From a virus, in the IMG/VR virus record IMGVR_UViG_3300045912_000119, positions 1-30,766 of that record: DNA of 30,766 bases. One strand, given 5' to 3'. Made by a program: the position numbers and the translations under genes. The notes beneath the pieces were generated by a model that worked only from the letters and a program-made list of their open reading frames with translations, had not been told where the DNA came from and made no database searches. Of this stretch, positions 577 to 26,039 are shown in pieces. Numbering within the stretch: the stretch's first letter is position 1; each line of letters starts with the position of its first letter.

Positions 577-771
577 ATGGGACAGATTATTTATGCAATA
601 TTTCTTGCGTATTTCAGTGGTTTGGTATGTAGCTTTTTCTTGATATTACACATAAGAGAGAATTGGCTTATGCTAATACCTAAAAAGAATGCGTTCCTTA
701 GTTGGGCATTCATATTTGCATTTCTTGTATATATGATTGAAGACGATGATGATAAGGGGGGTAGAAGATGA
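577..771 (+). CDS. small two-helix membrane protein, holin candidate
   Basis: This 64-residue protein has two hydrophobic segments, about residues 5-25 and 37-53, separated by a short polar/basic loop. It ends in a charged tail with four consecutive aspartates followed by basic residues. Two transmembrane helices, small size and a charged C-terminus are the usual look of class II holins, which form lesions in the inner membrane and release endolysin. The stop overlaps the ATG of the glucosaminidase gene at 768, so the two are almost certainly co-translated, and this adjacency is the main support for the holin reading. No sequence family is recognised, and it could instead be an antiholin or an unrelated small membrane protein. 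Confidence 0.6.
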   Translation: MGQIIYAIFLAYFSGLVCSFFLILHIRENWLMLIPKKNAFLSWAFIFAFLVYMIEDDDDKGGRR

Positions 772-1160
772 TTAAGATATTACACCCCTTACTACTATAC
801 ATTTGTGGCTTAACAGTACTAAAACCTGCAAATGTAGAAACTACACTTATTCTGAAAGAAGTTCAATTCTCTAAAATTGTATTGGCTCAGTCTATCCTTG
901 AAACAGGTTGGTACAAATGCAAAGACTGTTCTTTGCAAAGTAACAATATATTCGGGTTTAGGGTTAAGTCAGGCTATTTAAGCTTTGCACATTGGACAGA
1001 AAGTGTAAAATACTACAAAAAATGGCAAGATGCACGCTTTAAGAAGTACAAAAAAGAAATATGTAATGACGAAGATTACTATAATTTCTTAAAAGCTGTA
1101 GGCTATGCTGAAGACCCTGAATATGAAAACAAATTAAAACTAATAGTTAAAAGACTATGA
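768..1160 (+). CDS. endolysin, FlgJ/LytG-type N-acetylglucosaminidase
   Basis: This 130-residue protein has the glucosaminidase (GH73-like) signature. KIVLAQSILETGW at residues 36-48 supplies the probable catalytic Glu45. It is followed by SNNIFGFR (58-65), the motif that follows the catalytic Glu in FlgJ-type enzymes, then the aromatic stretch GYLSFAHW...YYKKWQDARF, and a C-terminal VGYAEDPEYENKL motif typical of these enzymes. The family hydrolyses the GlcNAc-MurNAc bond of peptidoglycan. Residues 1-20 are hydrophobic (IKILHPLLLYICGLTVL) and could be a signal or anchor sequence, allowing Sec-dependent export and SAR-like release. The start overlaps the preceding holin-like gene. At 130 aa it is a minimal version of the fold, with no cell-wall-binding domain. 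The stop TGA overlaps the next ATG at 1157. Confidence 0.85.
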   Translation: MIKILHPLLLYICGLTVLKPANVETTLILKEVQFSKIVLAQSILETGWYKCKDCSLQSNNIFGFRVKSGYLSFAHWTESVKYYKKWQDARFKKYKKEICNDEDYYNFLKAVGYAEDPEYENKLKLIVKRL

Positions 1161-8768: not shown

Positions 8769-9761
8769 ATGCTTACAACAAAAGGTTTTCAGACAAAAGT
8801 ATCTACAAACATATTAGAATATGTAACAGAGAAAGAAATATTTCAATATTACATAAGCAATTTTAAAAGAATTAACAGACCCTTTTCAAGTGAATTAAGA
8901 GAGGATAAAAACCCATCTTGTGTAATAAATACTTACAATGGTAGGTTAATTTACAAGGACTTCTCTACAAAAGAATCCTATAACTGTTTTGGTTATGTTA
9001 TGAGACTTTATAGTTGCAGTTTTATAGATGCTATAAATATTATAAAAAGAGATTTTAACATAAAATATGATATGCCAAAACATGAAATAAGAGTGCCTAC
9101 TATTGTAAAGAAAGAGAAAGTTTACAAAGATATAAGGATAGAGGTGAGAGATTTTAATGAAAAAGATTTAGAATTTTGGGGACAGTATAAAATTACTAAA
9201 CCAACTTTAGAATACTATAATGTATATGCATGTAAAACATTTTACATAAACGGTATTGATAGTTATTCTTACATAGGGGTAAACCCCGCTTATGCATATG
9301 ACCACAGTTTCTATAAGGAAAATACTTACAAAATACTAAGACCTTTTAGTGAACGTCACAGTAAGTGGTTATCTAATATGCCAGGAACAGTACTTTCTGG
9401 TATTAATAAGTTAAAACATGAAGATTTATTGATTATAACTAAGTCTTTTAAAGACATTATGGTTTGGAGGGAACTATTTGAAATAGATGCAGTTTGCCCC
9501 CAAAGTGAAAACCAAACAGTTTTTAATGAAGAAGATATTAGTTATTTGAAACAAAGATATAAAAAGATTTTAATAAATTATGACAATGATAATACTGGTT
9601 TAAAGTATTCAAAAGAACTTAATACTAAGTATAATTTTGACGGTATATTAAATATACCTGAAGTTTTAAAATCTAAAGACATCAGCGATGCAGCTAAAAC
9701 GAATCCCACTGGAGAAGTCATCTCCCATATATCAGACCTTATTAAAAGTTACAGAACTTAA
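8769..9761 (+). CDS. TOPRIM DNA primase (phage DnaG-like)
   Basis: This is a 330-residue primase. The N-terminal domain (about 30-100) has the CHC2-like pattern PFSSELREDKNPSC...GRLIYKDFSTKE...NCFGYVMRLYSCSFIDAINII, with only two well-placed cysteines (C51, C73), so the zinc site looks degenerate. The TOPRIM domain (about 215-310) reads LLIITKSFKDIMVW, then CPQSEN, then YDNDNTG with D272 and D274, then KDISD. The usual TOPRIM glutamate position in the first motif is Lys225. The 'ITKSxKDxM' form is common among primases of Bacteroidota phages as I recall them. It would prime lagging-strand synthesis for the helicase at 5694. It is preceded by the structured RNA element. Confidence 0.8.
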   Translation: MLTTKGFQTKVSTNILEYVTEKEIFQYYISNFKRINRPFSSELREDKNPSCVINTYNGRLIYKDFSTKESYNCFGYVMRLYSCSFIDAINIIKRDFNIKYDMPKHEIRVPTIVKKEKVYKDIRIEVRDFNEKDLEFWGQYKITKPTLEYYNVYACKTFYINGIDSYSYIGVNPAYAYDHSFYKENTYKILRPFSERHSKWLSNMPGTVLSGINKLKHEDLLIITKSFKDIMVWRELFEIDAVCPQSENQTVFNEEDISYLKQRYKKILINYDNDNTGLKYSKELNTKYNFDGILNIPEVLKSKDISDAAKTNPTGEVISHISDLIKSYRT

Positions 9762-10635
9762 CTTTGTTAAAGACCTTATTAATACATTTAGTGATTTCCC
9801 TATATTTTGCTACTATGAAGGCTTAATGCTTGTAGAAAAAGGTTTTTATTTTGACTTAAGTAATAAAGTTCTTAAAGCTATTAATGACGGGGATATTAAC
9901 ACTTTAAAGAATGATAATACAATAAATTTAAAAGAATTAACCTTTGTAAGAGATTCTATATTTTATAAAGTTTATGACCCTTATTTAAAAAGTTCTTACT
10001 TTATAAGTTATTATCAATTTCAAAGGTATTTTGAAGCTTATTACATGAGGCACCTTAAAAAAGATAAAGACTTAAGAAGAGGTTTTGAAAAGGTAAAAGT
10101 AGTATCTGTAGACAAAAGTATAGAATTATTTGGAAGAAATGTTTTAAGAAAAGCAATGCTTAATAAGAAGTTTAAACTTATTGATATTGAGTATAAGACA
10201 CCCAGAAGAATATTACACCAAGGAATACAAGATAAGTATTATATAATGGTTTTAGAAGTTACAGAGGCAGACGGATTTGATATAAGTAATAATAGCAATA
10301 GGCTTGTTAAATTTGTAGCAGATGATATTTCTATACACGATGATAGTTTATTTAAAGATGTGCTTTACAAAAGAATGGTAGAAAAAGGTTCTGAAGTTAT
10401 AATAAAAAATTCTAAGAAGATAAATATTCCTAAAAACTTTAAAACTGAAGTTTTAGAAGTAAGTAATAAGAAGTTAAGTGTTGAAATATTAGTAAATGAC
10501 CATAAAAATCAAAGAAAATGGATAGGCTTAAGAAAAGTAAAACCTTTAAAAAAGGTGCCAGTTTTGATAAAAGAGGACAGAGAACTCTTAAATCTTTACA
10601 GAAAGAAAAGGGAAAAAAACGAAGTTTCTTCTTAA
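9688..10635 (+). CDS. hypothetical protein at head of the amidoligase cassette
   Basis: This is a 315-residue protein rich in Lys, Tyr and Phe. The longest frame opens at the ATG at 9688, overlapping the primase by 74 nt. The first internal ATG is at 9826, so the true start is uncertain. No catalytic motif is seen. The central part (YYQFQRYFEAYYMRHLKKDKD) is strongly amphipathic, and the C-terminus (about 210-315) is beta-rich then very basic. Its end overlaps the ATP-grasp gene by 118 nt, suggesting that the two are translationally linked. It might be an accessory subunit of the cassette, but that is inference. Confidence 0.55.
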   Translation: MQLKRIPLEKSSPIYQTLLKVTELNFVKDLINTFSDFPIFCYYEGLMLVEKGFYFDLSNKVLKAINDGDINTLKNDNTINLKELTFVRDSIFYKVYDPYLKSSYFISYYQFQRYFEAYYMRHLKKDKDLRRGFEKVKVVSVDKSIELFGRNVLRKAMLNKKFKLIDIEYKTPRRILHQGIQDKYYIMVLEVTEADGFDISNNSNRLVKFVADDISIHDDSLFKDVLYKRMVEKGSEVIIKNSKKINIPKNFKTEVLEVSNKKLSVEILVNDHKNQRKWIGLRKVKPLKKVPVLIKEDRELLNLYRKKREKNEVSS

Positions 10636-11402
10636 CATTATTCTCAAGACACCCTAGTCATAATGTACTAAGAAAGGCTTTAATAGTCCCTAAAAGAACA
10701 TTAATAAGATTAGGCTCTACTACTAAAGGCTCTGCAAATTATACTTTAGAGATTAACTCTATACAAAGTGTAAAAAACAGTGCAAATAAGCTTTTGATGA
10801 AAAAGATATTTAAAGAAAACGATATAAAAACAGCAGATTGGTGGACAGAGGGCACTTTAATAGATTGGGCTAAAGAAAGATACCCCATTGTTGCTAAGAG
10901 TATTTACGGAAGTAGGGGTAGAGGAAATACCCTTATAAAAAATGAAGAGGATTTGTATATTTGGGCAGAAGATAAAAACCTAAGTAATTACATATTTGAA
11001 AAATACTATTCTTATAACAGAGAATATAGGTTACATGTAACTAAAAATGGTTGTTTTTATGCTTGTCGTAAAGTATTAAAAAGTGAAACTCCTGAAGACA
11101 AAAGATGGTTTAGGAACGACTCTAACTGTAGTTGGTTATTGGAAACCAATGAAAAGTTTGACAAGCCTGTAAACTGGGAAGATATTGAAAAAGAATGTGT
11201 AAAAGCTTTAACATGTTTAGGCTTAGACATTGGGGGTTTTGATGTCAGAGTACAATCCAGTAAAGATAAAGATGGCAATTTAAGAGAATACCCAGAATTT
11301 ATAGTTATAGAAAGTAACTCTGCCTGTTCCTTTGGGGACATTACGGGTATTAAATACAAAGAAGCTATTGAAAAACTTATAAAAGAATATTATGATTGCT
11401 GA
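10518..11402 (+). CDS. ATP-grasp ligase of phiEco32-type amidoligase cluster
   Basis: This is a 294-residue ATP-grasp fold enzyme. Residues 1-50 are very basic. IRLGS (63-67) begins the pre-ATP-grasp region. KSIYGSRGRG (127-136) supplies the ATP-binding lysine and glycine-rich loop. FEKYY (160-164) is the linker-strand Glu, REYRLHV (168-174) the R-x-Y-R element, FDVRVQ (241-246) the metal region, and FIVIESNSACSFG (261-273) the E/N metal ligands. The family makes acyl-phosphates and ligates them to amines or thiols. Related ATP-grasps occur next to COOH-NH2 ligases in phages (Iyer and Aravind group, phiEco32 type), exactly the context here. The start at 10518 overlaps the previous gene by 118 nt, but no later Met would keep the IRLGS region. 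Confidence 0.8.
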   Translation: MDRLKKSKTFKKGASFDKRGQRTLKSLQKEKGKKRSFFLTLFSRHPSHNVLRKALIVPKRTLIRLGSTTKGSANYTLEINSIQSVKNSANKLLMKKIFKENDIKTADWWTEGTLIDWAKERYPIVAKSIYGSRGRGNTLIKNEEDLYIWAEDKNLSNYIFEKYYSYNREYRLHVTKNGCFYACRKVLKSETPEDKRWFRNDSNCSWLLETNEKFDKPVNWEDIEKECVKALTCLGLDIGGFDVRVQSSKDKDGNLREYPEFIVIESNSACSFGDITGIKYKEAIEKLIKEYYDC

Positions 11403-12012
11403 AAAGAAAACAGCTGTTAAAGCCTTAACAGACGCACAAATAAAAGAGAAAAGAAAGGCTTATGCAAGTATACCTAGTAAATATTTTGCTCTTACCTTAG
11501 AAGAAGTTCTTTATGCTTTTGACAGCTTAATATTATTAAAAGATAATGCTTTTTGCAAATCTTTTAAAACTAAAATTAAAGCCTATTATAAAAAAGGTTT
11601 TATCATAAGCGTTGTTCCTGAAAACTATACTCTATTTAAAGATAAAAGAAATATGGTGTGGTATGAAATTGTACACACTTATATAAACTTTTATGTACTA
11701 GATTATAGATTTACTGAAGTGTTTAAAAGTCCCGATTTTAAGAGGTTCCCTGCTCAGTGCAGTACTGCAATAATGTACAATTTGGAAGGGGGTTTGAGTC
11801 ATAACCCTAATTTCAATTTAGAATATTTCAAAATAATAGAGATGTTATTAAAAATGATGAACTATACACAGATTATGATTAGCCTTTCTGAGGATGAAAA
11901 TTATTATAATACCCATTTATTTTTTGAAAAATTGGGGTATAAGACTATACACACCCTTGAAAATTTAAATACAGGTCATTTTATAGAGTTTAAAGTTAAA
12001 CACTTATGGTAA
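11392..12012 (+). CDS. GNAT-like acetyltransferase-fold protein
   Basis: This is a 206-residue protein. The C-terminal part (NYYNTHLFFEKLGYKTIHTLENLNTG, about 170-195) has the FFEKLGY-turn-strand pattern that closes many GNAT domains. The middle (WYEIVHTYINFYVLDYR, then AQCSTAIMYNLEGG) would supply the central strands and pyrophosphate loop, although a clean R/Q-x-x-G-x-G/A acetyl-CoA loop is not visible. Acetyltransferase-fold proteins are reported members of phiEco32-type amidoligase clusters, where they may act as aminoacyl or peptidyl transferases. It overlaps the ATP-grasp gene by 11 nt and the amidoligase gene by 7 nt. The GNAT call is moderate. Confidence 0.55.
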   Translation: MIAEKKTAVKALTDAQIKEKRKAYASIPSKYFALTLEEVLYAFDSLILLKDNAFCKSFKTKIKAYYKKGFIISVVPENYTLFKDKRNMVWYEIVHTYINFYVLDYRFTEVFKSPDFKRFPAQCSTAIMYNLEGGLSHNPNFNLEYFKIIEMLLKMMNYTQIMISLSEDENYYNTHLFFEKLGYKTIHTLENLNTGHFIEFKVKHLW

Positions 12013-12839
12013 TAAATAAAAATGAAATAACTGTAGGTTCAGACCCAGAGTTTTTCCTACAAGACTCCGAGAGTCGTAATTTAGTATCAGCTATTGGTAT
12101 AATACCAGGCTCTAAGAAAAACCCTCATTATCTTGAAAAAGATGGGTTTGCAATACAAGTAGATAATGTAGCTTGTGAGTTTAATGTACCTCCTTGCAAA
12201 GATTATAAAGAAATGTGGGGTAATTTTGAATACATTTTTAAAACTTTAAGAGAATCTTACCTCCCTAAAAACATAGAACCTTTGATAATAAGTTCTGCAA
12301 TTTTTCCTAAAGAACTATTAGAGCACCCTATTGCAAAGACTTTTGGGTGTGAAGAAGATTTCTGTGCATGGACAGAAAGTGTAAACCCTAAACCTAAGTC
12401 TGAAAACCCTTGTTTGCGTACTGCAGCAGGTCATATTCATATAGGTTATAACAACCCTACTTTAGATACATCTATCTCTTTTATAAAAGCTTTGGACTTA
12501 TTCATAAGCATACCTTTAGTTTTTGAAGAAAAGGATAAAAGAAGAAGAGAGTTGTATGGAAAAGCAGGCTGCTTTAGGTTTACTAAATTCGGTTTTGAAT
12601 ACAGAACCCCTGGTAATTTATGGATAACAGATATAAGTTATGTTAAATTTATATTTGATGCTATAAATAGGGCTATTGATTTTGTAAATGATAACAGAAT
12701 AAAGGATTTAGATGCTACTGATGTTAAAAAGATTCAATTGGCAATAAATAATAACAATAAATTGTTTGCCAAACAGTTAGTTAATAAGTTTAAAATACCT
12801 TTATTTAACACTATATATGAAAACAGTACAGTTTGTTAA
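12006..12839 (+). CDS. phiEco32-like amidoligase-type 2 (COOH-NH2 ligase)
   Basis: This 277-residue enzyme belongs to the glutamine-synthetase/GCS-like amidoligase superfamily. VGSDPEFFLQD (10-20) gives the metal-binding Glu15. DNVACEFN (about 54-61) is the second acidic motif. AGHIHIGY (141-148) is the conserved H-x-H-x-G strand, and RFTKFGFEYRTPGNLW (about 195-210) is the R-x-x-x-G-x-E-x-R motif that binds the ATP phosphates. This set is the signature of phiEco32-like amidoligases. The superfamily joins a carboxylate to an amine with ATP hydrolysis; the substrate of the phage versions is unknown. It is embedded between the GNAT-like gene and a gene of unknown function. Confidence 0.88.
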   Translation: MVINKNEITVGSDPEFFLQDSESRNLVSAIGIIPGSKKNPHYLEKDGFAIQVDNVACEFNVPPCKDYKEMWGNFEYIFKTLRESYLPKNIEPLIISSAIFPKELLEHPIAKTFGCEEDFCAWTESVNPKPKSENPCLRTAAGHIHIGYNNPTLDTSISFIKALDLFISIPLVFEEKDKRRRELYGKAGCFRFTKFGFEYRTPGNLWITDISYVKFIFDAINRAIDFVNDNRIKDLDATDVKKIQLAINNNNKLFAKQLVNKFKIPLFNTIYENSTVC

Positions 12840-13542
12840 TAATACAGAAGATTGTTTAAACGAAATACCTATGTCAGGCTTAATGTATACAGTTTTAAAC
12901 AAAGATTTAGTTTCTTTGACCCCTAGAATGTTATGTAGAGATTACATATTAGACTTGTTTTGGTCTGAAAATACAGGAAATGATATAGATAATATTTATG
13001 GTTTTACATACGAACCTGGTAAGTTAGACTTAAAAGATAATGTAAATATTGCATTAACTTATGCCCCTAATATAGATTTTCGTTTTAATGAAATCTCTGA
13101 ATTACCAGAATTTGAAGAAGAGGATTTAGAGAAATTAAAAAGTGTTTTAAATTTAGCAGAAAGTTCCTTAAACTTCTCTAAAACAGAGTTAGAGTTTGCT
13201 AATGATAAGAAAGTTATACTTTTAACATGTAGCCCTGAATGGTTTACAAAACCTTATGTTATAAGCATATATACTTTATTATGGAACCTTAGTAGTCATT
13301 ATTCTGATGAATCTAGTATAGAAGAATTTCTTAGGAACATAACAGCTTTGAATGACAAAAGAGCTATGTTTGTTAAAACGAACTTATGCTTTTTAGAAGA
13401 TTTCTTTTATGGAGTACAGCATGAGCAAAAATGGGAGTCTTATAATAGAGATATAAATAGCGACTACTCGATACACAATACATCAGGTTTTGTAAATTTT
13501 AATAATAACCTAATTAAAAAATCAAAAGTATGTGCGGACTAA
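12817..13542 (+). CDS. hypothetical protein in amidoligase cassette
   Basis: This is a 241-residue acidic protein (clusters ELPEFEEEDLEKL and DESSIEEFLRN) with alternating helices and strands. It has no signal peptide, membrane segment or recognisable catalytic signature. It overlaps the amidoligase by 23 nt and the following glutamine amidotransferase by 13 nt, so it is probably translated with them. It may be a cluster-specific partner or the acceptor of the modification. Function unknown. Confidence 0.55.
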   Translation: MKTVQFVNNTEDCLNEIPMSGLMYTVLNKDLVSLTPRMLCRDYILDLFWSENTGNDIDNIYGFTYEPGKLDLKDNVNIALTYAPNIDFRFNEISELPEFEEEDLEKLKSVLNLAESSLNFSKTELEFANDKKVILLTCSPEWFTKPYVISIYTLLWNLSSHYSDESSIEEFLRNITALNDKRAMFVKTNLCFLEDFFYGVQHEQKWESYNRDINSDYSIHNTSGFVNFNNNLIKKSKVCAD

Positions 13543-14900
13543 TAGGCTTCTCTGGAAGCGACATGAATGTAGATAAAATAAAGTTACTATTATTTTGGAA
13601 TAGCCTAGAACGTGGAAAAGACGCCACAGGCATATACAGCAGACAAACAGGTATCATAAAAGATAACAATGAAGCTAGGATTTTTATAAAAAACAATAAC
13701 GATGCTTTTAAAAACTGTAACCTTTTTATAGGGCATGTTAGGGCTAAAACATCAGGTTTTAACACTAAAGACAATGCCCACCCATTCTCCTATAACGGAA
13801 TAGTACTAGCTCATAACGGTACTTTATACCAAGAAATTAAGTTATGTCAAACTATGGGTTTAAATTACACTGATTTTGACGTAGATAGTGAAATACTTGC
13901 AGCAGGTATAGGTAAAACTTTAGATACTAAGGTATTAACAGCTTACGAAGGTTCTGCAGCAGTATTGTTTACAGACCATAATAATAAAAACTCTGATATA
14001 CTATACGCTTATAGGGATAAAAACAGACCTTTGTTTAGGGGTAGTTTAGATAACTCTTTGTACATATCATCTATAAAAGAATCTTTGGAATTTATAGGGT
14101 GTAATAACATCAAAGAGTTTAAAGAAAACCACCTTTATGCTATAAAAAATGGTAAGATAGATAGTTACGTTAAGATTAAAAATCCTAATGTAATAAGTAC
14201 TACTACTCATATAAGCAGTTGTGGTGTTAACAGTAATTCTGAATTTGTAGGGAGTTATGTTGTTATTGATACTGAAATTAGCACAAACTCTCCTGATTAT
14301 GAGTATATTGTTAAAAATAAGGTAAAAAAAGGTAATTCTTATTACGTTAACAGCTTTTTCACGAAAGACAGCAAACCTTACTTTAATGTAAAATGCCCTT
14401 ATACTAATAAAGTTTTAGATATTCCTAAATATGTAACAGCTTATACTAAGTATACCCTTAAAACAGGTGATTATGCATTATGCATGGCCAATTTAACATA
14501 CACTTCTAAAGAAAAAAAGGGGCAACCTTGTGCAGCTATAGGAGATTTGTTAAAGGTTATAGGTTTTGCTCAAAAGAATGAAAAGGATATTGAAGTTAAA
14601 AACTTAAGTAATGGTGAGACTTTTTGGGTAGACCCTAGATTTATACGAGGCTTTTACAATGTAAATGTTGACCAAAATCTATTGGAAACATTGAAAAAGA
14701 AGTACGAAGATAAAGAAAATAACTTCCTTAAAGACTTAAGTATATTTTCAGAGGTTTATAAAGATTTAGATAATATGACAAAATCTCTATCTGAAAATGA
14801 AAACTACTCTTTGAAAAATGTAACAGAAGCTGTAGACGAAATTAAAAGTAAGTTAGAGGCTTTAGAAACAGAGATAGAACAAGAGTTATGGGCAAGTTAG
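13530..14900 (+). CDS. class II glutamine amidotransferase (Ntn-hydrolase) 1
   Basis: This 456-residue protein begins MCGLIGFSG, so removal of Met exposes the catalytic Cys2 of class II (GlmS/AsnB/PurF-type) glutaminases. RGKDATGIY (28-36), GHVRAKTSG (68-76, with R71 for the glutamine carboxylate), HPFSYNG, and AHNG (94-97, oxyanion Asn96/Gly97) complete the active site. The first 200 residues are the glutaminase. The remaining 250 contain a beta-rich region and a C-terminal coiled coil (about 390-450), with no synthetase domain recognised. It should hydrolyse glutamine and pass ammonia to a partner, most simply one of the amidoligases on either side. The start ATG is fixed by the required Cys at position 2. 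Confidence 0.9.
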   Translation: MCGLIGFSGSDMNVDKIKLLLFWNSLERGKDATGIYSRQTGIIKDNNEARIFIKNNNDAFKNCNLFIGHVRAKTSGFNTKDNAHPFSYNGIVLAHNGTLYQEIKLCQTMGLNYTDFDVDSEILAAGIGKTLDTKVLTAYEGSAAVLFTDHNNKNSDILYAYRDKNRPLFRGSLDNSLYISSIKESLEFIGCNNIKEFKENHLYAIKNGKIDSYVKIKNPNVISTTTHISSCGVNSNSEFVGSYVVIDTEISTNSPDYEYIVKNKVKKGNSYYVNSFFTKDSKPYFNVKCPYTNKVLDIPKYVTAYTKYTLKTGDYALCMANLTYTSKEKKGQPCAAIGDLLKVIGFAQKNEKDIEVKNLSNGETFWVDPRFIRGFYNVNVDQNLLETLKKKYEDKENNFLKDLSIFSEVYKDLDNMTKSLSENENYSLKNVTEAVDEIKSKLEALETEIEQELWAS

Positions 14901-14914
14901 TAAAGATTTATAAA

Positions 14915-14931
14915 TGTTTAACTATTAAACA
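14915..14931 (+). other. 7-bp perfect hairpin before second amidoligase gene
   Basis: TGTTTAA, loop CTA, TTAAACA forms a perfect 7-bp inverted repeat in the 39-nt gap between the first glutamine amidotransferase and the second amidoligase (ATG at 14940). This is one of the few places in the cassette where genes do not overlap. It lacks a following T-run, so it is not a good intrinsic terminator. It could be an RNA-processing or translational-control hairpin, or a protein-binding palindrome. Confidence 0.3.
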
Positions 14932-14939
14932 GTTTACGT

Positions 14940-16685
14940 ATGCCTCAAAATCAAAATCCTAGTAATACGACTAACTTACACCTTCTTACAGAAGAAGAAC
15001 TTTCGCAAATCCTAAATGGACTGACAATTCCTGAAAACCCGCTTAATATAAATGTAGAAGAAGTACCTGTTACATCTTCAGATACTTGGCCAAGTTTAGA
15101 AGTTAGTGAGGGTTCTTCAGATACAAGTATAAATGAAGAAAATAGCATAACCCCTTTGCCAGAGCCTGTGTTCTTTGCTCATGGAGGAGACGGAAGTGGT
15201 ATTGCAGGTTCTAATTCTAAAAAATGTAATTTTGGAGGAACAACTTCTGTAACTTATGGTAAAGTAGTTATTTCTGGAAAAGTTTACCCTGTAGAAAAAT
15301 GTGTATTAATACACAAAAACTGGTACCTTAAAACTGATAAAAATGTCATAACAGACTATTATGGGAATATTACACATAAAAACTACTGTGAATCCTATTA
15401 TGATTTTAAAAGTCTAAATTTAAACAAGTTAGAAGACGGTAGCTTTATGGTAAGTTTCAAAGACACTTTGTACTTTGACATTATAAAAAATGTTAATTTA
15501 GACAGGTTTGTATACACAATAGAATGTAAGGGTTACACTTTTAAGGTTTTTGCAGAGAAAGAAGATGATTTAATACAAGCAGGATTTAAAGAATCTTTCA
15601 AAAATGGTAATTATTACATAAACTTAGACGAATTAAAGACTGCAAAAAGCCCAAGACTATTTAATGTTTTTGAGAATCATTATGTTAAAAATCCTAAAGA
15701 AGATAACCTTAAAACCAATTTGTTTTTAGAGAACAAAGACTATACATTTGGAGTGGAGATAGAAGCTAGTTCTGGAATAATACCAACAAGGCTGATGTTT
15801 GACATAGATGCTCACTGTGAACGTGATGGCTCTATAAATAAGCATATGCCTAATAAACCTGGTGGCCCAGAAATAGTTACAAGCGTTTTAAAAGGAGATT
15901 TAGGCTTTGTAAAACTAAAGAAAATATGCGATGTGTTAAGTAAACGGTATACTATAAACAAAGACTGCGGTGTGCATGTGCATGTAGGGAAAAGGGAATT
16001 TAGCAATGAGTTTCTTTTCTTTATGTATTTCGTAGCTTTGAAAATAGAGAATGAACTGTTTTCTTTACTTCCGCATTCCAGAAGATTTAATAAATACTGT
16101 AGACCTTTGATTCCTGTATTAGATTTTCATGGAGGTATTTCTGATATGAAAAGGTATAAGGAGTTGTATGAAACAGATACTTACTTGTATAAACAAAGTA
16201 TAAACGATTTTGTAAATTCTTTATATGTTTTAGCATCTAAACACCCTTTAGACCATAAAAATAATAAAGAAACAAATCATCCAGAAGGTTCTAAATGCAG
16301 TTATAATCAAAATACTATAAGGTATTGTTGGTTAAACCTAATACCTGCGATGTTTAATACAAGGGGTTCTAAAGCATATACCCTTGAGTTTAGAAATCAT
16401 AGTGCTAGTCTTAACTTTAACAAAATAAAAAATTGGGTTAAATTATGTGTAGGCATTGTAGATTTTGTAGATACTAAACAAGAGTATATATTAAACAATT
16501 TTGAAAAAATAGACTTAAATACGATAATAAGAATGACTTACCCAAAAAGGGGGGATAGGCTTATAGCGTATATGGATTCTAGGAAAGAGTTGTTTAGAGT
16601 GTCTACTTCTGAGAAAGCAGAGTATTACAAAAAGAGTAACTTAGATAATAAAAACAAAAAACTAAAAGAAATAATATGTGCTTAA
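14940..16685 (+). CDS. second amidoligase (Amidoligase_2-type) with long N-terminal extension
   Basis: This is a 581-residue protein. Residues 1-75 are low-complexity (Ser, Thr, Asn, Pro, Glu), followed by a short glycine-rich stretch (HGGDGSGIAG). Residues about 100-265 hold beta-rich repeats of unknown function (two similar K-C-V-L-I-H-K-N-W-Y-type segments). The amidoligase domain starts at FGVEIEAS with metal ligands E273 and E275. It continues with DAHCERDGSI, PGGPEIVTS, CGVHVHVG (343-350) and the C-terminal LEFRNHSASLNFNKI, which carries the E-x-R motif. It should form an amide bond with ATP. The first amidoligase is about half its size. The end overlaps the second amidotransferase gene by 10 nt. 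Confidence 0.85.
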   Translation: MPQNQNPSNTTNLHLLTEEELSQILNGLTIPENPLNINVEEVPVTSSDTWPSLEVSEGSSDTSINEENSITPLPEPVFFAHGGDGSGIAGSNSKKCNFGGTTSVTYGKVVISGKVYPVEKCVLIHKNWYLKTDKNVITDYYGNITHKNYCESYYDFKSLNLNKLEDGSFMVSFKDTLYFDIIKNVNLDRFVYTIECKGYTFKVFAEKEDDLIQAGFKESFKNGNYYINLDELKTAKSPRLFNVFENHYVKNPKEDNLKTNLFLENKDYTFGVEIEASSGIIPTRLMFDIDAHCERDGSINKHMPNKPGGPEIVTSVLKGDLGFVKLKKICDVLSKRYTINKDCGVHVHVGKREFSNEFLFFMYFVALKIENELFSLLPHSRRFNKYCRPLIPVLDFHGGISDMKRYKELYETDTYLYKQSINDFVNSLYVLASKHPLDHKNNKETNHPEGSKCSYNQNTIRYCWLNLIPAMFNTRGSKAYTLEFRNHSASLNFNKIKNWVKLCVGIVDFVDTKQEYILNNFEKIDLNTIIRMTYPKRGDRLIAYMDSRKELFRVSTSEKAEYYKKSNLDNKNKKLKEIICA

Positions 16686-18124
16686 TCACAGTCATACCCA
16701 GTGGGGTAGATAAATACAGCAATTTCATACTTGATGCAATAAATGCAGGTTTTGCTACACAAGCAGATGGTACTGGGATGGTTTATCGTTTTAAAGACGA
16801 TAACCAAATTCATGTAGACAAGGGTTATTTTAATGAAACTAACTTTTTGAATGTTTACAGGGCTTTGAATTTTACAAAAGATGATGAGGTTATTATACAC
16901 CACAGACAAAGTACACAAGGTTCTAGAGATGAAAGTCAATGCCACCCATTTTTTGTAACAGATAGTGATACTATACTAGGGAAAGGTAATTACACCTCTA
17001 GTACCCTACCTGCTATAGCCCATAATGGGATTATAAATGGGCATGAGTATTTTGACCTGTTCAATTCTGATACTTATATGTGGGTAAAGAATACCCTTTC
17101 TAAAGATATAATGCATTTTATAAACAATACTGACGATTATATAAACGCAAACAAGGAACAATTAGGATGGTCGAAGTTTGCTTTGATTCACCCTACTTTA
17201 ACCTTTGACACTATAAGTTTTAATAAAGATGGAGCCCCTACAATGAGGCATTATATTAACAATCATATAATGCTTACAGAAGGTTTCATAGAAGACCAGG
17301 GTTGTTTCTTTTCTAATTCTTGTTACAAAAACAGAAGCTTTAGAGATTTGGGAGGTAGTTCTTTTATGACTAGTTACTCTAGAAACTATAAGCGTTTTGA
17401 AGAAGAGGAAGAAGATGACTTTCAAACTACAGGTCTTAGTAAAACTCTTACAGAAGAAAACTTAGGGTTAAGATTTGACATGAAGAATATAAAGGAACCT
17501 GTTAAAAAAGAAGGTTCTAAAAATGTTATAAAAGATTTTACAAGGAGTATTATCCCTTTTTCCATTCAGGAGGCGCAACCTGTTAAAAACACTGATGAAG
17601 ATAGTGAAGATGCATCAAAAATATTGATAAAAGACCCTTTATTTTGCATAACAAAAGACATTGTTAAAGAACTAAGGGTTTATGATAAACACGATTTGAC
17701 TACACCTGGAAAGGTAGAGATGATTGATAATGACAACTTAACAAATATACGTGTAGGGTTTTACAAGAATAATAGTCTTATTGCCAGTATTCATAATATA
17801 GGAGAAGATTATAGGAAAAACTACTACATATATGCTGTTGACTTTAGGAATAAGTATAAAGACTATAACACTTTAAATAGTCATATACAGAAAAGTAAAA
17901 GTCAGTTTAAGAAGTTGTCTAAGATTTTAACTAAAGCTAAGCATAAAAACTTAACTTTATTAGATGTAAAAATAGGAGATACTGTATTAAAATACATAAA
18001 TATAAAGGCTATAGAACTCTTTTTAGAACAATATTCTTTACAAAAAGATATGGAAAATGAATTAAAACGTATTAAAGAAAGGTCTAAAGAGTTCAGCAAT
18101 AACACACCCACACTCATAATGTAA
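16676..18124 (+). CDS. class II glutamine amidotransferase (Ntn-hydrolase) 2
   Basis: This 482-residue protein begins MCLITVIPSG with catalytic Cys2. The class II glutaminase motifs follow: ADGTGMVY (30-37), IIHHRQSTQGS (73-83, with R77), CHPF (89-92) and AIAHNGIING (113-122, oxyanion N117/G118). Residues about 230-482 are a separate lysine-rich region with acidic patches (FEEEEEDDFQ) and no recognised domain. It differs greatly from the first amidotransferase outside the core, so the two are not a recent tandem duplication. Pairing one amidotransferase directly after each amidoligase suggests two ligase-glutaminase couples. The start is fixed by the Met-Cys N-terminus. Confidence 0.88.
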   Translation: MCLITVIPSGVDKYSNFILDAINAGFATQADGTGMVYRFKDDNQIHVDKGYFNETNFLNVYRALNFTKDDEVIIHHRQSTQGSRDESQCHPFFVTDSDTILGKGNYTSSTLPAIAHNGIINGHEYFDLFNSDTYMWVKNTLSKDIMHFINNTDDYINANKEQLGWSKFALIHPTLTFDTISFNKDGAPTMRHYINNHIMLTEGFIEDQGCFFSNSCYKNRSFRDLGGSSFMTSYSRNYKRFEEEEEDDFQTTGLSKTLTEENLGLRFDMKNIKEPVKKEGSKNVIKDFTRSIIPFSIQEAQPVKNTDEDSEDASKILIKDPLFCITKDIVKELRVYDKHDLTTPGKVEMIDNDNLTNIRVGFYKNNSLIASIHNIGEDYRKNYYIYAVDFRNKYKDYNTLNSHIQKSKSQFKKLSKILTKAKHKNLTLLDVKIGDTVLKYINIKAIELFLEQYSLQKDMENELKRIKERSKEFSNNTPTLIM

Positions 18125-19248
18125 TGGCGTTTTTAAAAAAAGGAAGTAAGAAAGTAAAAAACACGAAAGCTTGTGAAATAGACGGCATTAAATTTAAGAG
18201 TACCTTAGAAGCAAATGTTTACACAGTATTTAAAGAGTTTGGAATACCCTTAGATTATGAAAAAGAAACATATACTATACTCCAAAACTTTGAATACCAA
18301 GGTGAGAACGTACGCCCAATAAGGATAACTCCTGATTTTGAAGCTGTAAATATGCCTGTGATTATAGAAGCTAAAGGTCACCCTAATGAGGCTTTTCCCC
18401 TTAAATTGAAGCTTTTTAAGAAGTACCTTAGTGAACATAAACCGCATCACAGTCTTTACATTATTAGGTCTAAGAAACAGGCTATAGAACTAGCTTCCAA
18501 ACTACAAGTCTACAGCAAACCAACAGCCTTGTTTGACGGGGATGGTATCTGCTACATTGCTGGTTTACCCAAAAACGGCATTTTAAAGCCTTTAGAAGAG
18601 GTTTTTGAATATGTAGATGCTATCCTGTCAGATGGGGTTAAAAAGACCAACTGTGAGGCTTATATAGGGTATTTAACGGGGTCTAATAACTTCCGTAAAG
18701 ATATTAACCCTGAGTATAAAGCTAACAGGAAAGGTAAAGAAAAACCCCCTTACTTTAAAGAAATAAGGGAGTACCTTATAAATAAACATAACTTTCAAGA
18801 ATTTAAGGGTTTAGAGGCAGATGACTGTATTAGTATAATAGCTAAGCATTATAAAAATACGGTTATAGTGTCTGTAGACAAAGACCTTAATATGTTGGAA
18901 GGTACAGTTTATAACCCAAGAAAGCAGCTTATTGCTGTTAATACAAAAGAGGATTTTGATAAGTATTTTTGGACAAGCATGATAGTTGGAGATACCGCAG
19001 ATAATGTTAAAGGAATACCTGGATATGGCCCTAAAAAGGCTAAGATTATTCTTAGTGATACTAGTAAACCTTATCATACCTTAGTGCTTAATGCCTATGT
19101 AGAAGCATTTAAAGAAGATGGGGTATCTGAATTTTGTAAAAACTATTACTGTTTAAAACTTTTAGATAAGTATAAAGGTTTTATTATACCAGAATCAAAG
19201 GAATCAAACCTTAATGTGGCAACGGCAAATGAAGTGGAAATTGTTTGA
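18124..19248 (+). CDS. fusion of PD-(D/E)XK nuclease and 5'-3' exonuclease (FEN)
   Basis: This is a 374-residue, two-domain nuclease. The N-terminal domain (about 15-125) has the DUF1064-like PD-(D/E)XK pattern, with E30 in STLEA, P70-D71 in TPDFE and E82-x-K84 in IIEAKG. The C-terminal domain (about 133-360) is a flap-endonuclease/5'-3' exonuclease: FDGDG (137-141), PEYKANRK (196-203), EADD (231-234), VDKD (251-254), DTADN (290-294) and the helix-3-turn-helix GIPGYGPKKA (297-306). It supplies the primer-removal activity that the polymerase lacks, and joins it to a Holliday-junction- or recombination-type nuclease. The start overlaps the TAA of the previous gene (TAATG). The frame is continuous through both domains. 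Confidence 0.85.
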   Translation: MAFLKKGSKKVKNTKACEIDGIKFKSTLEANVYTVFKEFGIPLDYEKETYTILQNFEYQGENVRPIRITPDFEAVNMPVIIEAKGHPNEAFPLKLKLFKKYLSEHKPHHSLYIIRSKKQAIELASKLQVYSKPTALFDGDGICYIAGLPKNGILKPLEEVFEYVDAILSDGVKKTNCEAYIGYLTGSNNFRKDINPEYKANRKGKEKPPYFKEIREYLINKHNFQEFKGLEADDCISIIAKHYKNTVIVSVDKDLNMLEGTVYNPRKQLIAVNTKEDFDKYFWTSMIVGDTADNVKGIPGYGPKKAKIILSDTSKPYHTLVLNAYVEAFKEDGVSEFCKNYYCLKLLDKYKGFIIPESKESNLNVATANEVEIV

Positions 19249-22404: not shown

Positions 22405-25400
22405 TTAATCGTCACCCCCAAACAATTTTTCCCATAAAGTCTCTTCATAAACTTGTTTAGAGGCTTGCATAGTATTATACACGGGTGTGGTAATCGGGAA
22501 TAGCTGCATAGTTTCTCTTAACCATCGGCTATCTCCCGCATTTACCCCCGATGATATTACATCATCTCCCATAATAAGTCTTACAGATGCACTAATCCAA
22601 TCAGTTACATCATCTACTATCTTTGTAGCAGGTATAGGATTTTTTAGAATTTTAAAGAAAGAATCTGGCCATACATAGAATATAACATCATCCTGTAGCC
22701 TATGACTTATGTTTACAAAGTAATTAATCACTGCTTTCTCTTCAGGGTCATCAGATGCACTAGCTTTAAGCATTAAGCCCATAGCTATTAACCCTATGTA
22801 TATAAGTATCTCTGTTGCATTTTTACGCATATTAGCCTTATCTAAATCAGAAAGCTGCGTATTAACATCCTTATTGTAATATCCAAAAGTAAGTGCTTTT
22901 AAAAGCTGACGTTTTAGGTCATTAGCTAAAAAGAAATAGTTTTGAAATATATTGTTCTCTGTACCGTCTTTGTTTACAGTAGTATCGTTAAAGAATAGCG
23001 GTATTAATGCTCTTAACCTACCTTTAGTATCCCTTTCAAGTATTTCATTATGGTTAAGCTCCCCAAACCTGTTGTTAAAACCTTCAGCAATCCAAGACCT
23101 AAACATTATCAACATTCTACCAAATACAGTCTTCTTAATCAGTACAGGTGAGTTAGGGTCGTAGTTACCATGTATTTTCTTATTAATCTCTACAATCTTA
23201 GTTTTAAACTTTGTCTGTTTACTGCCTGCAGTATCCCAAGCTTTGTCATCCCCTATAAAGTTACCTTCATCGTCATGTGCTTCAAACAAGTTAACTTCTT
23301 TACCGTTTACAGTTACCTTAGTATTAAGCATTAATGCTATAAAGGTGCTACCTTGGTTAAAGAACTCAGCCCTTTTTGTAAGCTCATAAGGGGATAGTTT
23401 AGATAAGCCTTTATTAACACTACTGTTATATGCAGAACCTTTATTATAATTCTCTTTAATATCACCTAATACGTTATACTTTTCTATTAAACTTAATATT
23501 TTTTTAGCCTTTTTATTCCTTACAAAGTCTGCCCCTAAAGTATTCCAAAGCATACGGTAGGCTTTCCTAAGCTGTGAAGTGTTAAAGTCTTCAGCACCTG
23601 CTGCCCAAGTAAAGTTAGATACGTAACCAAAACCTAAGTTAGTTGCAGCACTATACACATTCCACCCTAAACCTTTTACATGTAAATAACGTAGAAACAA
23701 TTCATATTGGCGTTCTTTAACAACGTACTTCCCTATACTTTGAAGCTCGTCTTTCAAAGCCTCTGTTTTAGCTTCATATTCTTCTTTAGTAATTTTCCCA
23801 GATTCAAAGGCTTGCTTCGTTTTTTTTACTTCTTCATTAATGGCCTTTCGTTTCTTACGTTCCTCTATTGTATAGACTTTGTTTTTGGATACAGTTTCTT
23901 TCTTCTTCTTGTCAAAGAATACTTCAAACTGATACTCCCACATTTCTCTTAGGTTGTTTAAGCCCCCTTTTGCCGCTAAAGCACCCCACTTACTTGAGTT
24001 AACTTGATTACCTTCAGCATCAAGTATTTGCTCTTTAGCATCCTTTATAGCTACATCATATAAACGTATTAAGTCTTCTATACTGCTTTTATGCTTATAA
24101 GAGTTAGATACTGCAGAAAATGCTTTAATAACTTTAGTAAGGTCAAAAGACTTGTTTTTAGCCTTTTCAGCAACGATTCTCTTTATCTCTGATGCTTTGT
24201 ATAACCTTTGTGCTTTTTTATCGTTAGGATGCTTAATTTTGGCCTCTTTTAATATACTATCATATTCTTCATCTGTAACTTTGCCATACACATTATCCAT
24301 CATGTATACGGGGAGCTTTAAACGAGGTTTCCCTGTAGAATCCATTTCGACTACATTATTATCCCATATTTCATTAATACCTACAGAATTTACATAACTG
24401 TTATATAGTACTTTAGGTATTGAGGTTATGTTAGATATATTAATGTTGTCAAATAAATTGACAGGTAATTCAGGGAGATAATTACTTTGTAGACCCTCTT
24501 TTACGTGTTGTGGGTAAAATGCTTTATACTGTTTTAAAGCATCCATAAATTCGTTATAGTACTCTAAATAAGCACTATTAGACTCTATAAACTGAAAGTT
24601 CTTATCATAGAAATTGGTATCTTTATTGTTTGAGTCGAACCGCCTTGGTACTTGTATAAGGTATTCGTAACCTTGAAAGAATTTTTCATTATTTGTAACT
24701 GTTGTTTCATTGTTAAAGTATGTGTTTGCATATGAAAATGGGGAGTATTTAACTAACCAGTCGTCTATAGCCTGCATTTCTTCTGCTAAACTTAAGTCTT
24801 TTACAGCTAACTGTTCTTTAAAAAGCTCAAAACGGTTTTCAAATTTAGCAAGCTGTTTTTCGGCTTGTTTTAAGTAGAACTCATAACCCTTTTCCCCTAA
24901 ATGTCTTTTAAGTTCTTTTATGTGATTGTCTATGTAAGTACGGTCAAATTCTTTGGCGTTTGTATGCAAGTCTTTGTAAACTTCTGGGAAAAGCACCCTA
25001 TAGTCAAATAGTAGGGTATTCTCCTTTATAAATTTCTTATATCGTTTCCAAGCTTTGCCGTCTTTCCTTTTAGCACCTTTTGGTGTATTATCTTTAATAG
25101 CTTCAAAGAACTCAGGGCTAAATCTGTGTACAATTTGTCCTGTTGCTTTACCGTCAGCCCAAGTCTGTTTAAACTTTTCAAAAAGCTTTTTAGGGTTACT
25201 TGTACCTGCAGCCTTAATAAGTTTCTCTGTTAACTTATCCCATTTCCCAAGTTCTTTTGCAGTTTCTAATTCTGCTTTAGTGTTAGCTTCTTTAATAATT
25301 CTGTCTATAGCCCTTATTACAAGGTTCCTGCTTTGTGCAGCATCTAAGAACAAAGCACTGGCTCTGCTCTCTTCTCTAAGCTCCTTAATGTCTTTTACAC

Positions 25401-26004
25401 TGATATTCTTCCCTGTAATATCCTTGACACTTTGCTGTATAGCTAAGTGAGAGGCATTAGTCCAACTATACCTGTGAAGTTCATGTGCAGCATCCCTAAT
25501 TTTTTTTAGCTCTTGGTAATTAAGAGATTGGTCTGTTATATCAGACTCCATTAAGAATTGGTCAGTGTACTCACTAGTCCAAAATTTAAGAAGTTCTAAT
25601 GTATAAAGTAAGTCACTTTCTGATAAGGAATCCCCTGTTAGTATTCTTCTAACTTCTTCTATATCAGAATTACCAATAGATATTACTTTTGAGAAAGTTT
25701 CTTGGTTTTTAAGGTTTTCTATCTCTTCTAATACCTTTTCTTTAGTGTCTACAAAATCCCTAACTTTAATCTCATTCTTCTTAGCCCTTGCCTTTTGTAT
25801 ATTTTCATTCAGTATTTTAACCTGTAATTCTTTTTGGTTTATAAGAACCTGATACTTATTGTCATTGTTAGAAGGTAATGCATCATCGTATTGAACAGGA
25901 CTAGTCCTATCGTTCAAATACAATGTTATTGCATCCTTAGCCCCATATTTAGCTATCATAGCAGCTAACATAGGGTCTTTTACACTTTTTACTTTACATG
26001 ACAT
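22405..26004 (-). CDS. giant virion/ejected protein downstream of the RNA polymerase gene
   Basis: This 1199-residue protein has long helical and coiled-coil regions (about 40-110 and 380-450). A middle region (about 470-640) is aromatic-rich: PRRFDSNNKDTNFYDKNF, FYPQHVKEGLQSNYLPELPV. A charged helical stretch follows (about 720-790), and the C-terminal third has hydrophobic segments including ILIYIGLIAMGLMLKA near residue 1085. No enzymatic motif is recognised. In crAss-like phages, giant proteins beside the virion RNA polymerase are packaged and ejected, and this gene's size, order and strand match. A hydrophobic C-terminal region could help DNA or protein cross the envelope; that is inference. 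It starts 36 nt after the polymerase stop and converges on the rightward genes at 22.4 kb. Confidence 0.7.
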   Translation of the reverse strand: MSCKVKSVKDPMLAAMIAKYGAKDAITLYLNDRTSPVQYDDALPSNNDNKYQVLINQKELQVKILNENIQKARAKKNEIKVRDFVDTKEKVLEEIENLKNQETFSKVISIGNSDIEEVRRILTGDSLSESDLLYTLELLKFWTSEYTDQFLMESDITDQSLNYQELKKIRDAAHELHRYSWTNASHLAIQQSVKDITGKNISVKDIKELREESRASALFLDAAQSRNLVIRAIDRIIKEANTKAELETAKELGKWDKLTEKLIKAAGTSNPKKLFEKFKQTWADGKATGQIVHRFSPEFFEAIKDNTPKGAKRKDGKAWKRYKKFIKENTLLFDYRVLFPEVYKDLHTNAKEFDRTYIDNHIKELKRHLGEKGYEFYLKQAEKQLAKFENRFELFKEQLAVKDLSLAEEMQAIDDWLVKYSPFSYANTYFNNETTVTNNEKFFQGYEYLIQVPRRFDSNNKDTNFYDKNFQFIESNSAYLEYYNEFMDALKQYKAFYPQHVKEGLQSNYLPELPVNLFDNINISNITSIPKVLYNSYVNSVGINEIWDNNVVEMDSTGKPRLKLPVYMMDNVYGKVTDEEYDSILKEAKIKHPNDKKAQRLYKASEIKRIVAEKAKNKSFDLTKVIKAFSAVSNSYKHKSSIEDLIRLYDVAIKDAKEQILDAEGNQVNSSKWGALAAKGGLNNLREMWEYQFEVFFDKKKKETVSKNKVYTIEERKKRKAINEEVKKTKQAFESGKITKEEYEAKTEALKDELQSIGKYVVKERQYELFLRYLHVKGLGWNVYSAATNLGFGYVSNFTWAAGAEDFNTSQLRKAYRMLWNTLGADFVRNKKAKKILSLIEKYNVLGDIKENYNKGSAYNSSVNKGLSKLSPYELTKRAEFFNQGSTFIALMLNTKVTVNGKEVNLFEAHDDEGNFIGDDKAWDTAGSKQTKFKTKIVEINKKIHGNYDPNSPVLIKKTVFGRMLIMFRSWIAEGFNNRFGELNHNEILERDTKGRLRALIPLFFNDTTVNKDGTENNIFQNYFFLANDLKRQLLKALTFGYYNKDVNTQLSDLDKANMRKNATEILIYIGLIAMGLMLKASASDDPEEKAVINYFVNISHRLQDDVIFYVWPDSFFKILKNPIPATKIVDDVTDWISASVRLIMGDDVISSGVNAGDSRWLRETMQLFPITTPVYNTMQASKQVYEETLWEKLFGGDD

Positions 26005-26039
26005 ATTACAAAAATATTATTAATAATTTTAATTACCTA

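What the first reader, a model, noticed from the sequence alone, without database searches (positions are those of the whole stretch)
10518..18124. Expanded amidoligase cassette: two COOH-NH2 ligases, two glutaminases, an ATP-grasp and a GNAT-like protein
Six probable enzymes of amide-bond chemistry sit in overlapping genes over 7.6 kb. The phiEco32-type clusters predicted by the Iyer/Aravind group contain such families, and their product is unknown. Here each amidoligase is followed by an Ntn glutaminase (the first pair separated by one unknown gene), suggesting two ligase-ammonia-source couples acting in sequence, perhaps building a peptide or amide tag on a protein, nucleotide or cell-wall acceptor. 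The cassette sits inside the replication block, so it is probably expressed with replication rather than with structural genes, which would favour a DNA, nucleotide or host-protein target. Seen: the motifs and overlaps. Inferred: the pathway.
Basis: partly seen in the sequence, partly recalled or inferred. Interest (0 to 1): 0.75.

Follow-up and report, generated by a model that had tools for sequence, protein, structure and literature searches.

The report
Phage amidoligase cassette, two-glutaminase variant
This crAss-like phage fragment carries a variant of a widespread phage gene set that joins molecules through amide bonds; the set is real and tightly conserved, but what it makes is still unknown, and here it has an extra glutaminase-type enzyme and two unusual partner proteins.

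Summary
Confirmed: 10518-18124 encodes, in overlapping genes, an ATP-grasp ligase, a degenerate GNAT-fold protein, a phiEco32-type COOH-NH2 ligase (PF14395), an unknown protein (UNK5), a class II glutaminase (GAT1), an Amidoligase_2 enzyme and a second class II glutaminase (GAT2), within the replication block. It is a variant of a known kind: the phage amidoligase cassette of phiEco32-, LUZ24- and 7-11-like phages and of crAss-like Asinivirinae. Of 52 IMG/VR loci found through the COOH-NH2 ligase alone, all 52 also carry GAT and Amidoligase_2, and 46 carry the ATP-grasp. New here: (1) GAT2 is a separate glutaminase lineage (100/99 support), found only directly after Amidoligase_2. (2) Most relatives also carry gamma-glutamyl-cleaving enzymes (GGACT, PuuD-like C26); this fragment lacks both. 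(3) UNK5 is a recurrent cassette protein with no PDB fold match and invariant Cys/Asp/His. (4) The GNAT-like protein lacks the acetyl-CoA motif its relatives keep. My favoured reading is gamma-glutamyl amide making and breaking on an unknown acceptor, not necessarily ammonia channelling. The acceptor is undecided: restriction resistance of cassette-bearing Gordonclarkvirinae hints at DNA, but DNA of cassette-bearing phage tf is cut by five enzymes.

The parts
9688..10635 (+). P1, 315-aa protein of unknown function just upstream of the ATP-grasp, in the place that GGACT (gamma-glutamyl cyclotransferase) holds in many relatives; membership in the cassette uncertain
   Evidence: no hits in Pfam, PHROGs, NCBIfam, PADLOC; no relative in fetched loci
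10518..11402 (+). ATP-grasp carboxylate-amine ligase (phage RimK-like / 'S6 glutaminyl transferase' family)
   Evidence: PHROG 2599 3.6e-31; NCBIfam weak hits to MptN, RimK, cyanophycin synthetase; 43-48% identity to phi14:2 and cr108_1
11392..12012 (+). GNAT-fold-like protein without the acetyl-CoA motif; invariant Cys123
   Evidence: Foldseek list almost all GNATs; relatives L059, L090 over the Pfam GNAT cut-off; motif RGKRxGT present in L058/L059 (RNKRAGT in L090), absent here
12006..12839 (+). phiEco32-type COOH-NH2 ligase type 2 (glutamine-synthetase-like, PF14395)
   Evidence: PF14395 1.2e-13, PHROG 3815 4.9e-67; conserved GSDPE, HxHxGY, R180, R191, E198, R200
12817..13542 (+). UNK5, unknown-fold family recurring in or near the cassette; invariant C40, D42, G62, S150, H220, G224
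   Evidence: AlphaFold2 pLDDT 80.4, pTM 0.83; no PDB match at E<=0.001; one viral match of unknown function at 1.1e-6
13530..14900 (+). GAT1, class II (Ntn) glutaminase with a C-terminal extension
   Evidence: GATase_6 1.4e-13, PHROG 4736 2.3e-26, PurF-like in the PDB; C2, R71, H95-N96-G97, D119 invariant
14940..16685 (+). Amidoligase_2 enzyme (PF12224) with a ~250-aa N-terminal extension
   Evidence: PF12224 2e-14; conserved FGxExE, RDGS, GxE, HxHxG, EFRxH
16676..18124 (+). GAT2, second class II (Ntn) glutaminase, distinct lineage, paired with Amidoligase_2
   Evidence: invariant C2, R77, H116-N117-G118, D132 in 14 sequences; GAT1/GAT2 split 100/99
8769..9761 (+). DNA primase flanking the cassette
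   Evidence: PHROG 12622 1.6e-34
18124..19248 (+). exonuclease / resolvase-like protein flanking the cassette
   Evidence: PHROG 107 4.4e-55, PF02739 3e-11

Best explanation
It is a phage amidoligase cassette of the phiEco32 / crAss-Asinivirinae kind, in the variant that has a second glutaminase directly after Amidoligase_2. Shown: enzyme families, active-site residues, conserved linkage, replication-block setting. Inferred mechanism: the ATP-grasp ligase and the two glutamine-synthetase-like ligases each activate a carboxylate with ATP and join it to an amine, in successive steps on one acceptor. The Ntn enzymes cleave gamma-glutamyl amides, either to release ammonia from glutamine or, as EgtC does, to take off a gamma-glutamyl group. 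In most relatives a GGACT and a PuuD-like C26 hydrolase add two more gamma-glutamyl-cleaving activities, so I favour a pathway that makes and breaks gamma-glutamyl (isopeptide) bonds during infection over simple ammonia-dependent amidation. The acceptor (small metabolite, envelope peptide, protein or nucleotide) is not determined. My confidence is about 0.95 for the cassette identity and about 0.4 for the gamma-glutamyl chemistry; the figure below is for the statement as a whole.
For: Families and motifs. Linkage in three samples gathered by different genes: through the COOH-NH2 ligase, 52/52 with GAT and Amidoligase_2, 46/52 ATP-grasp, 35 C26, 34 GGACT; through Amidoligase_2, 36/36 with COOH-NH2 ligase and GAT, 35/36 ATP-grasp; through ATP-grasp, 42/42 with GAT and Amidoligase_2, 39/42 COOH-NH2 ligase. 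The query gene itself is present by construction, and some contigs recur between samples. Annotated records: phi14:2, cr108_1, Bas89, NV1, GAP52. GGACT directly precedes the ATP-grasp gene in crAss-like phages (31 cases) and, in reversed order, overlaps it in LUZ24-like NV1. C26 directly precedes the COOH-NH2 ligase in 43 cases. Precedents for cleaving gamma-glutamyl bonds with the same folds: class II GAT EgtC with the gamma-glutamyl ligase EgtA (PMC9103826); PuuA with PuuD (PMC8394153); gamma-glutamyl cyclotransferases of the BtrG fold (PMC12756093).
Against: No biochemistry exists for any of these phage enzymes in the papers I could read. This fragment has neither GGACT nor C26, though it is only 30.8 kb of what is probably a ~100-kb genome. 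GAT2 co-occurs with C26 and GGACT in 7 of 12 contigs, so it is not a plain substitute for them. Class II GATs more often act as ammonia sources. The COOH-NH2 ligase/C26 co-loss (0 of 6 against 61 of 71, p 3e-5) rests on few independent lineages: three of the six contigs look like one phage type and two are distant.
Confidence: 0.5

Rival explanations
1. Ammonia-channelling couples: each glutaminase frees ammonia from glutamine for its neighbouring ligase, so the product carries carboxamides.
For: Both GATs keep the full class II glutaminase active site; GAT1 scores best against PurF, GlmS and AsnB, which channel ammonia; Amidoligase_2-GAT2 is a stable two-gene unit.
Against: No synthase domain is recognised in either GAT; most cassettes serve two ligases with one GAT; conserved GGACT and C26 are not explained by amidation.
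Confidence: 0.35
2. Nucleotide or DNA modification: the pathway adds an amide-linked group to a base or dNTP and protects phage DNA from restriction.
For: The cassette lies beside primase/helicase genes in the crAss-like, phiEco32-like, LUZ24-like, OM43 and Rhizobium phages looked at. Gordonclarkvirinae, which carry it (Bas89), are reported as remarkably resistant to restriction-modification with no known modification pathway (PMC11990801).
Against: DNA of cassette-bearing LUZ24-like phage tf is cut by RsaI, HpaI, EcoRV, SmaI and HaeIII (PMC3517423), so no bulk modification that blocks those. The Basel authors point instead to a dCTP deaminase and a nucleotidyltransferase. No hydroxymethylase or base-transfer gene was found among the window genes scanned.
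Confidence: 0.2
3. Envelope or cell-wall modification against superinfection, the published proposal for phiEco32 (Iyer and others 2009, as quoted in PMC10580990 and PMC11318856).
For: The proposal is quoted. GS-like and ATP-grasp ligases act on peptide stems elsewhere, peptidoglycan contains a gamma-D-glutamyl bond, and early expression would suit exclusion (own knowledge).
Against: No transporter, lipid-carrier or periplasmic enzyme recognised in the cassette; hosts have very different envelopes (Bacteroidota, Proteobacteria, mycobacteria for the two-gene form); the constant primase neighbourhood is unexplained. I could not read the original paper.
Confidence: 0.2
4. Tagging of a host or phage protein: the RimK-like ATP-grasp adds amino acids to a protein end and the other enzymes trim or amidate the tag.
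For: The ATP-grasp falls in the PHROG named ribosomal protein S6 glutaminyl transferase.
Against: The PHROG name is annotation only; the cassette DNA is filled by large ORFs, leaving no small tag gene inside it; no conserved target identified.
Confidence: 0.15

Closest known systems
phiEco32-type amidoligase cassette (Gordonclarkvirinae, e.g. Escherichia phage Bas89; 7-11-like GAP52)
   Same: PF14395 ligase, class II GAT, ATP-grasp, beside replication genes; Amidoligase_2 and GGACT annotated in Bas89
   Different: Order is COOH-NH2 ligase - x - Amidoligase_2 - GAT - ATP-grasp - GGACT - primase; one GAT; GGACT present; no UNK5 or C26 match in the proteins tested
LUZ24-like phage cassette (UFV-P2, NV1)
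   Same: Same enzyme set next to primase/helicase (published gene table of UFV-P2 in PMC3890496)
   Different: Gene order as in phiEco32; single GAT; no C26 match
crAss-like Asinivirinae cassette (Cellulophaga phage phi14:2, cr108_1)
   Same: Same order ATP-grasp ... COOH-NH2 ligase - GAT - Amidoligase_2, between primase and exonuclease
   Different: GGACT (phi14:2) or C26 (cr108_1) present; no GAT2, GNAT-like protein or UNK5 inside the cassette; UDG follows Amidoligase_2
Amidoligase_2-GAT two-gene units (OM43 phage MEP402; Marvin-like mycobacteriophage Poise)
   Same: Amidoligase_2 directly followed by a class II glutaminase of the GAT2 kind
   Different: No second ligase or ATP-grasp annotated nearby; Amidoligase_2 there scores just under the Pfam cut-off (19.3-19.6 against 22)
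Cellular gamma-glutamyl pathways (EgtA/EgtC, PuuA/PuuD, BtrJ/BtrG)
   Same: Similar folds of ligase and gamma-glutamyl-cleaving enzyme used in pairs (BtrJ/BtrG pairing from my own knowledge)
   Different: Analogy of folds only; membership not tested; substrates here unknown

Membership tests
phage amidoligase cassette (phiEco32 / LUZ24 / Asinivirinae kind) | COOH-NH2 ligase type 2 + Amidoligase_2 + class II GAT encoded together | tested here: met
   same set in 52/52 loci found through the COOH-NH2 ligase
phage amidoligase cassette (phiEco32 / LUZ24 / Asinivirinae kind) | ATP-grasp ligase in the same cluster | tested here: met
   46/52 loci
phage amidoligase cassette (phiEco32 / LUZ24 / Asinivirinae kind) | GGACT (PF06094) in or beside the cluster (common but not universal) | tested here: not met
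   profile finds none in the window; present in 64 of 77 contigs, so not a strict requirement; the window is a fragment
COOH-NH2_lig (PF14395) | score over the curated cut-off | tested here: met
   51.4 against 25 bits
Amidoligase_2 (PF12224) | score over the curated cut-off | tested here: met
   54.5 against 22 bits
class II glutaminase (Ntn), GAT1 | N-terminal Cys and the R / NG / D glutamine-binding set | tested here: met
   C2, R71, N96-G97, D119 invariant; GATase_6 over cut-off
class II glutaminase (Ntn), GAT2 | N-terminal Cys and the R / NG / D glutamine-binding set | tested here: met
   C2, R77, N117-G118, D132 invariant in 14 sequences; no Pfam model over its cut-off
ATP-grasp | score over the curated Pfam cut-off | tested here: not met
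   19.6 against 27 bits; PHROG 2599 strong, so the assignment rests on PHROG and alignment
active GNAT acetyltransferase | GNAT fold | tested here: inconclusive
   low-confidence model; nearly all of the 50 PDB matches listed are GNATs, best E 3.9e-3
active GNAT acetyltransferase | acetyl-CoA pyrophosphate-binding motif (R/Q-x-x-G-x-G/A type) | tested here: not met
   RGKRxGT in L058/L059 and RNKRAGT in L090, absent in the window and in L132
ammonia-channelling glutaminase-ligase couple | ammonia transfer between the two active sites | not testable with these tools
   needs biochemistry or a complex structure
known anti-phage defence system component | match to a PADLOC model | tested here: not met
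   0 families for all eight proteins

The most novel reading that the evidence does not exclude
The amidoligase cassette is an unrecognised covalent DNA- or nucleotide-protection pathway, made through gamma-glutamyl-type ligation, that explains the unexplained restriction resistance of Gordonclarkvirinae and is shared by crAss-like phages; this window shows its two-glutaminase form, with an unknown-fold cysteine protein (UNK5) as a further enzyme.
Probability: 0.1. Interest if true: 0.88.

Novelty: new variant of a known kind. Interest (0 to 1): 0.5.

Why it matters
The cassette occurs in many unrelated phage groups, including crAss-like phages and phages of E. coli K-12, and I found no report that its product is known, although a role was predicted in 2009. 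The conserved company of two gamma-glutamyl-cleaving enzymes, the separate GAT2 lineage tied to Amidoligase_2, and the recurrent UNK5 family narrow the chemistry to look for and name new candidate components. Cassette-bearing Basel-collection phages that grow on a laboratory E. coli strain and resist restriction without a known reason make the question directly testable.

Tried and rejected
Close-relative scans with the single COOH-NH2 ligase and with the GNAT-like protein found nothing; alignments worked. UNK5 against the other unknown cassette proteins (c12, c13) by profile comparison: not significant. Weak Foldseek matches of UNK5 to unknown proteins of GAP52 and cr108_1 (E 0.12 and 0.93), which by length appear to be the cassette neighbours in those phages, are only a lead. 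P1 as a divergent GGACT and P3 as a divergent C26: no profile match. GAT2 as a recent duplicate of GAT1: rejected, the families separate with 100/99 support. GAT2 as a replacement for C26 or GGACT: not supported. Amidoligase_2 of GAT2 loci forming one clade (14/14, 97/88) was not taken as proof of a couple, because the GAT1 tree is consistent with the same lineage split, so it may be a phage-lineage effect. The Occludin_ELL hit in GAT2 (1.3e-5, below cut-off) is judged a coiled-coil artefact. A scan with the GAT2 alignment was not possible. PDB sequence searches for both GS-like ligases and GAT2 found nothing. The original 2009 paper is not held.
Full report
Observation. The window is an IMG/VR virus record of 30,766 bases. 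The stretch 10518-18124 holds seven co-directed ORFs that overlap by 7-23 nt, with a 39-nt gap between GAT1 and Amidoligase_2; GAT2 then overlaps the exonuclease gene by 1 nt. Families: ATP-grasp (PHROG 2599, 3.6e-31), COOH-NH2 ligase (PF14395, 1.2e-13; PHROG 3815, 4.9e-67), class II glutaminase GAT1 (GATase_6, 1.4e-13), Amidoligase_2 (PF12224, 2e-14). The second glutaminase is below all library cut-offs, but its active-site residues are invariant across 14 relatives. Upstream lie DNA polymerase A, a DnaB-type helicase, a Sak4-like protein and primase; downstream an exonuclease.

Known context. The same enzymes lie between primase and exonuclease in Cellulophaga phage phi14:2 and crAss-like cr108_1, both Steigviridae, Asinivirinae. 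The crAss-like label for this window rests on that gene content; terminase and capsid genes are not in the fragment, so it was not tested further. In phiEco32-like Bas89, LUZ24-like NV1 and 7-11-like GAP52 the order differs: COOH-NH2 ligase - x - Amidoligase_2 - GAT - ATP-grasp - GGACT - primase/helicase (in GAP52 seen as far as the ATP-grasp, with the Amidoligase_2 position annotated as hypothetical). A published table of UFV-P2 lists this set (PMC3890496). The cassette is therefore known. The published guess for phiEco32 is envelope modification against superinfection (quoted in PMC10580990, and PMC11318856).

Linkage test. Three IMG/VR samples gathered through different genes agree. Through the COOH-NH2 ligase: 52/52 loci of at least 17 kb hold GAT and Amidoligase_2, 46 ATP-grasp, 35 C26, 34 GGACT, 8 GAT2. 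Through Amidoligase_2: 36/36 loci of at least 15 kb hold COOH-NH2 ligase and GAT, 35 ATP-grasp. Through ATP-grasp: 42/42 hold GAT and Amidoligase_2, 39 COOH-NH2 ligase. Some contigs recur between samples. Six loci on contigs of about 160-353 kb carry C26 - COOH-NH2 ligase - GAT - Amidoligase_2 without a nearby ATP-grasp hit (L116, L122, L124, L136, L151, L153).

In relatives the cassette usually includes a GGACT (PF06094) and one or two C26 hydrolases of the PuuD kind (PF07722). C26 directly precedes the COOH-NH2 ligase in 43 cases, and GGACT directly precedes the ATP-grasp in 31. Both are absent here. Both cleave gamma-glutamyl bonds in their characterised relatives, as does the class II GAT EgtC. 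This is the main reason I prefer gamma-glutamyl chemistry to plain ammonia-dependent amidation. It is inference.

The two couples. GAT1 and GAT2 separate with 100/99 support, and GAT2 groups with glutaminases of a Christensenellales phage, mycobacteriophage Poise and a Rhizobium phage (long branches, unrooted). In Poise and in OM43 phage MEP402 the pair Amidoligase_2-GAT stands without a second ligase annotated nearby (the ligases score 19.3 and 19.6 against a cut-off of 22). In crAss-like relatives GAT2 always directly follows Amidoligase_2. That couple is well supported as a unit. GAT1 is not tied to the COOH-NH2 ligase: it directly precedes Amidoligase_2 in 78 cases against 49 directly after the COOH-NH2 ligase. 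Amidoligase_2 of GAT2-bearing loci is one clade (14/14, 97/88), which may simply mark the phage lineage.

Variant features. Loci L018 (the same contig as L154) and L132 share this window's order ATP-grasp - GNAT-like - COOH-NH2 ligase - (UNK5 here) - GAT - Amidoligase_2 - GAT2. The GNAT-like family includes members over the Pfam cut-off (L059, L090) that keep an RGKRxGT-type motif; the window protein and L132 lack it, so acetyl-CoA use is doubtful. A Cys in the GNAT core (C123) is invariant in the aligned members. UNK5 has 14 or more members, lies inside the cassette in several lineages and 5.6-8.8 kb downstream in others, has a good model (pLDDT 80.4) and no PDB match at E<=0.001. Its invariant C40, D42 and H220 suggest an enzyme, not shown.

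Acceptor. Replication-block placement recurs in the crAss-like, phiEco32-like, LUZ24-like, OM43 and Rhizobium phages examined. The Basel study reports that Gordonclarkvirinae resist restriction-modification without a known modification (PMC11990801), and Bas89 of that group carries this cassette. Against a bulk DNA modification, DNA of cassette-bearing phage tf is cut by RsaI, HpaI, EcoRV, SmaI and HaeIII (PMC3517423). I leave the acceptor open: small metabolite or peptide, envelope, nucleotide and protein all remain possible.

Verdict. New variant of a known kind.

Noticed in passing
window 12817-13542; L003, L032, L015, L016, L018, L113: UNK5, a protein family of unknown fold with invariant Cys/Asp/His, recurs next to the COOH-NH2 ligase or ATP-grasp in several lineages and sits 5.6-8.8 kb downstream in others; weak Foldseek matches point to unknown proteins of GAP52 and cr108_1.
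   Followed up: partly
L031, L085/L087, L093, L102, L112; also L105 (Bas89) COOH-NH2 ligase: Ligase genes of the cassette are repeatedly split by inserts; the L031 and L102 inserts fall in a recurring family (c9) and the Bas89 insert is annotated as an HNH endonuclease, as expected for homing elements in highly conserved genes.
   Followed up: no
L116, L122, L124, L136, L151, L153: Contigs of about 160-353 kb carry a shorter cassette C26 - COOH-NH2 ligase - GAT - Amidoligase_2 with no ATP-grasp hit nearby.
   Followed up: no
L113 (contig binned as an archaeon MAG): GAT - Amidoligase_2 and UNK5 - COOH-NH2 ligase on one contig, followed by genes whose sequences look like GuaB and PurA/PurZ; probably a phage contig mis-binned.
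   Followed up: no
cassette unknowns, e.g. L006:13671-14573, L095:5430-6206: A second unknown family (13-16 members by iterated profile search) lies near the ATP-grasp, C26 and COOH-NH2 ligase genes in many crAss-like cassettes.
   Followed up: partly
window 22405-30764, - strand: Two very large ORFs: 1199 aa with no PHROG match, and one of over 1574 aa, open at the window edge, matching phrog_16227 (virion structural protein).
   Followed up: no
window 768-1160: Glucosaminidase-domain protein (PF01832, 2e-15), a likely endolysin, at the left end of the replication block.
   Followed up: no
L007 (Leptolyngbya phage Lbo-JY46): The cassette lies near genes annotated as nicotinate phosphoribosyltransferase (PncB) and PRPP synthetase (PrsA), suggestive of NAD metabolism next to amidoligases.
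   Followed up: no
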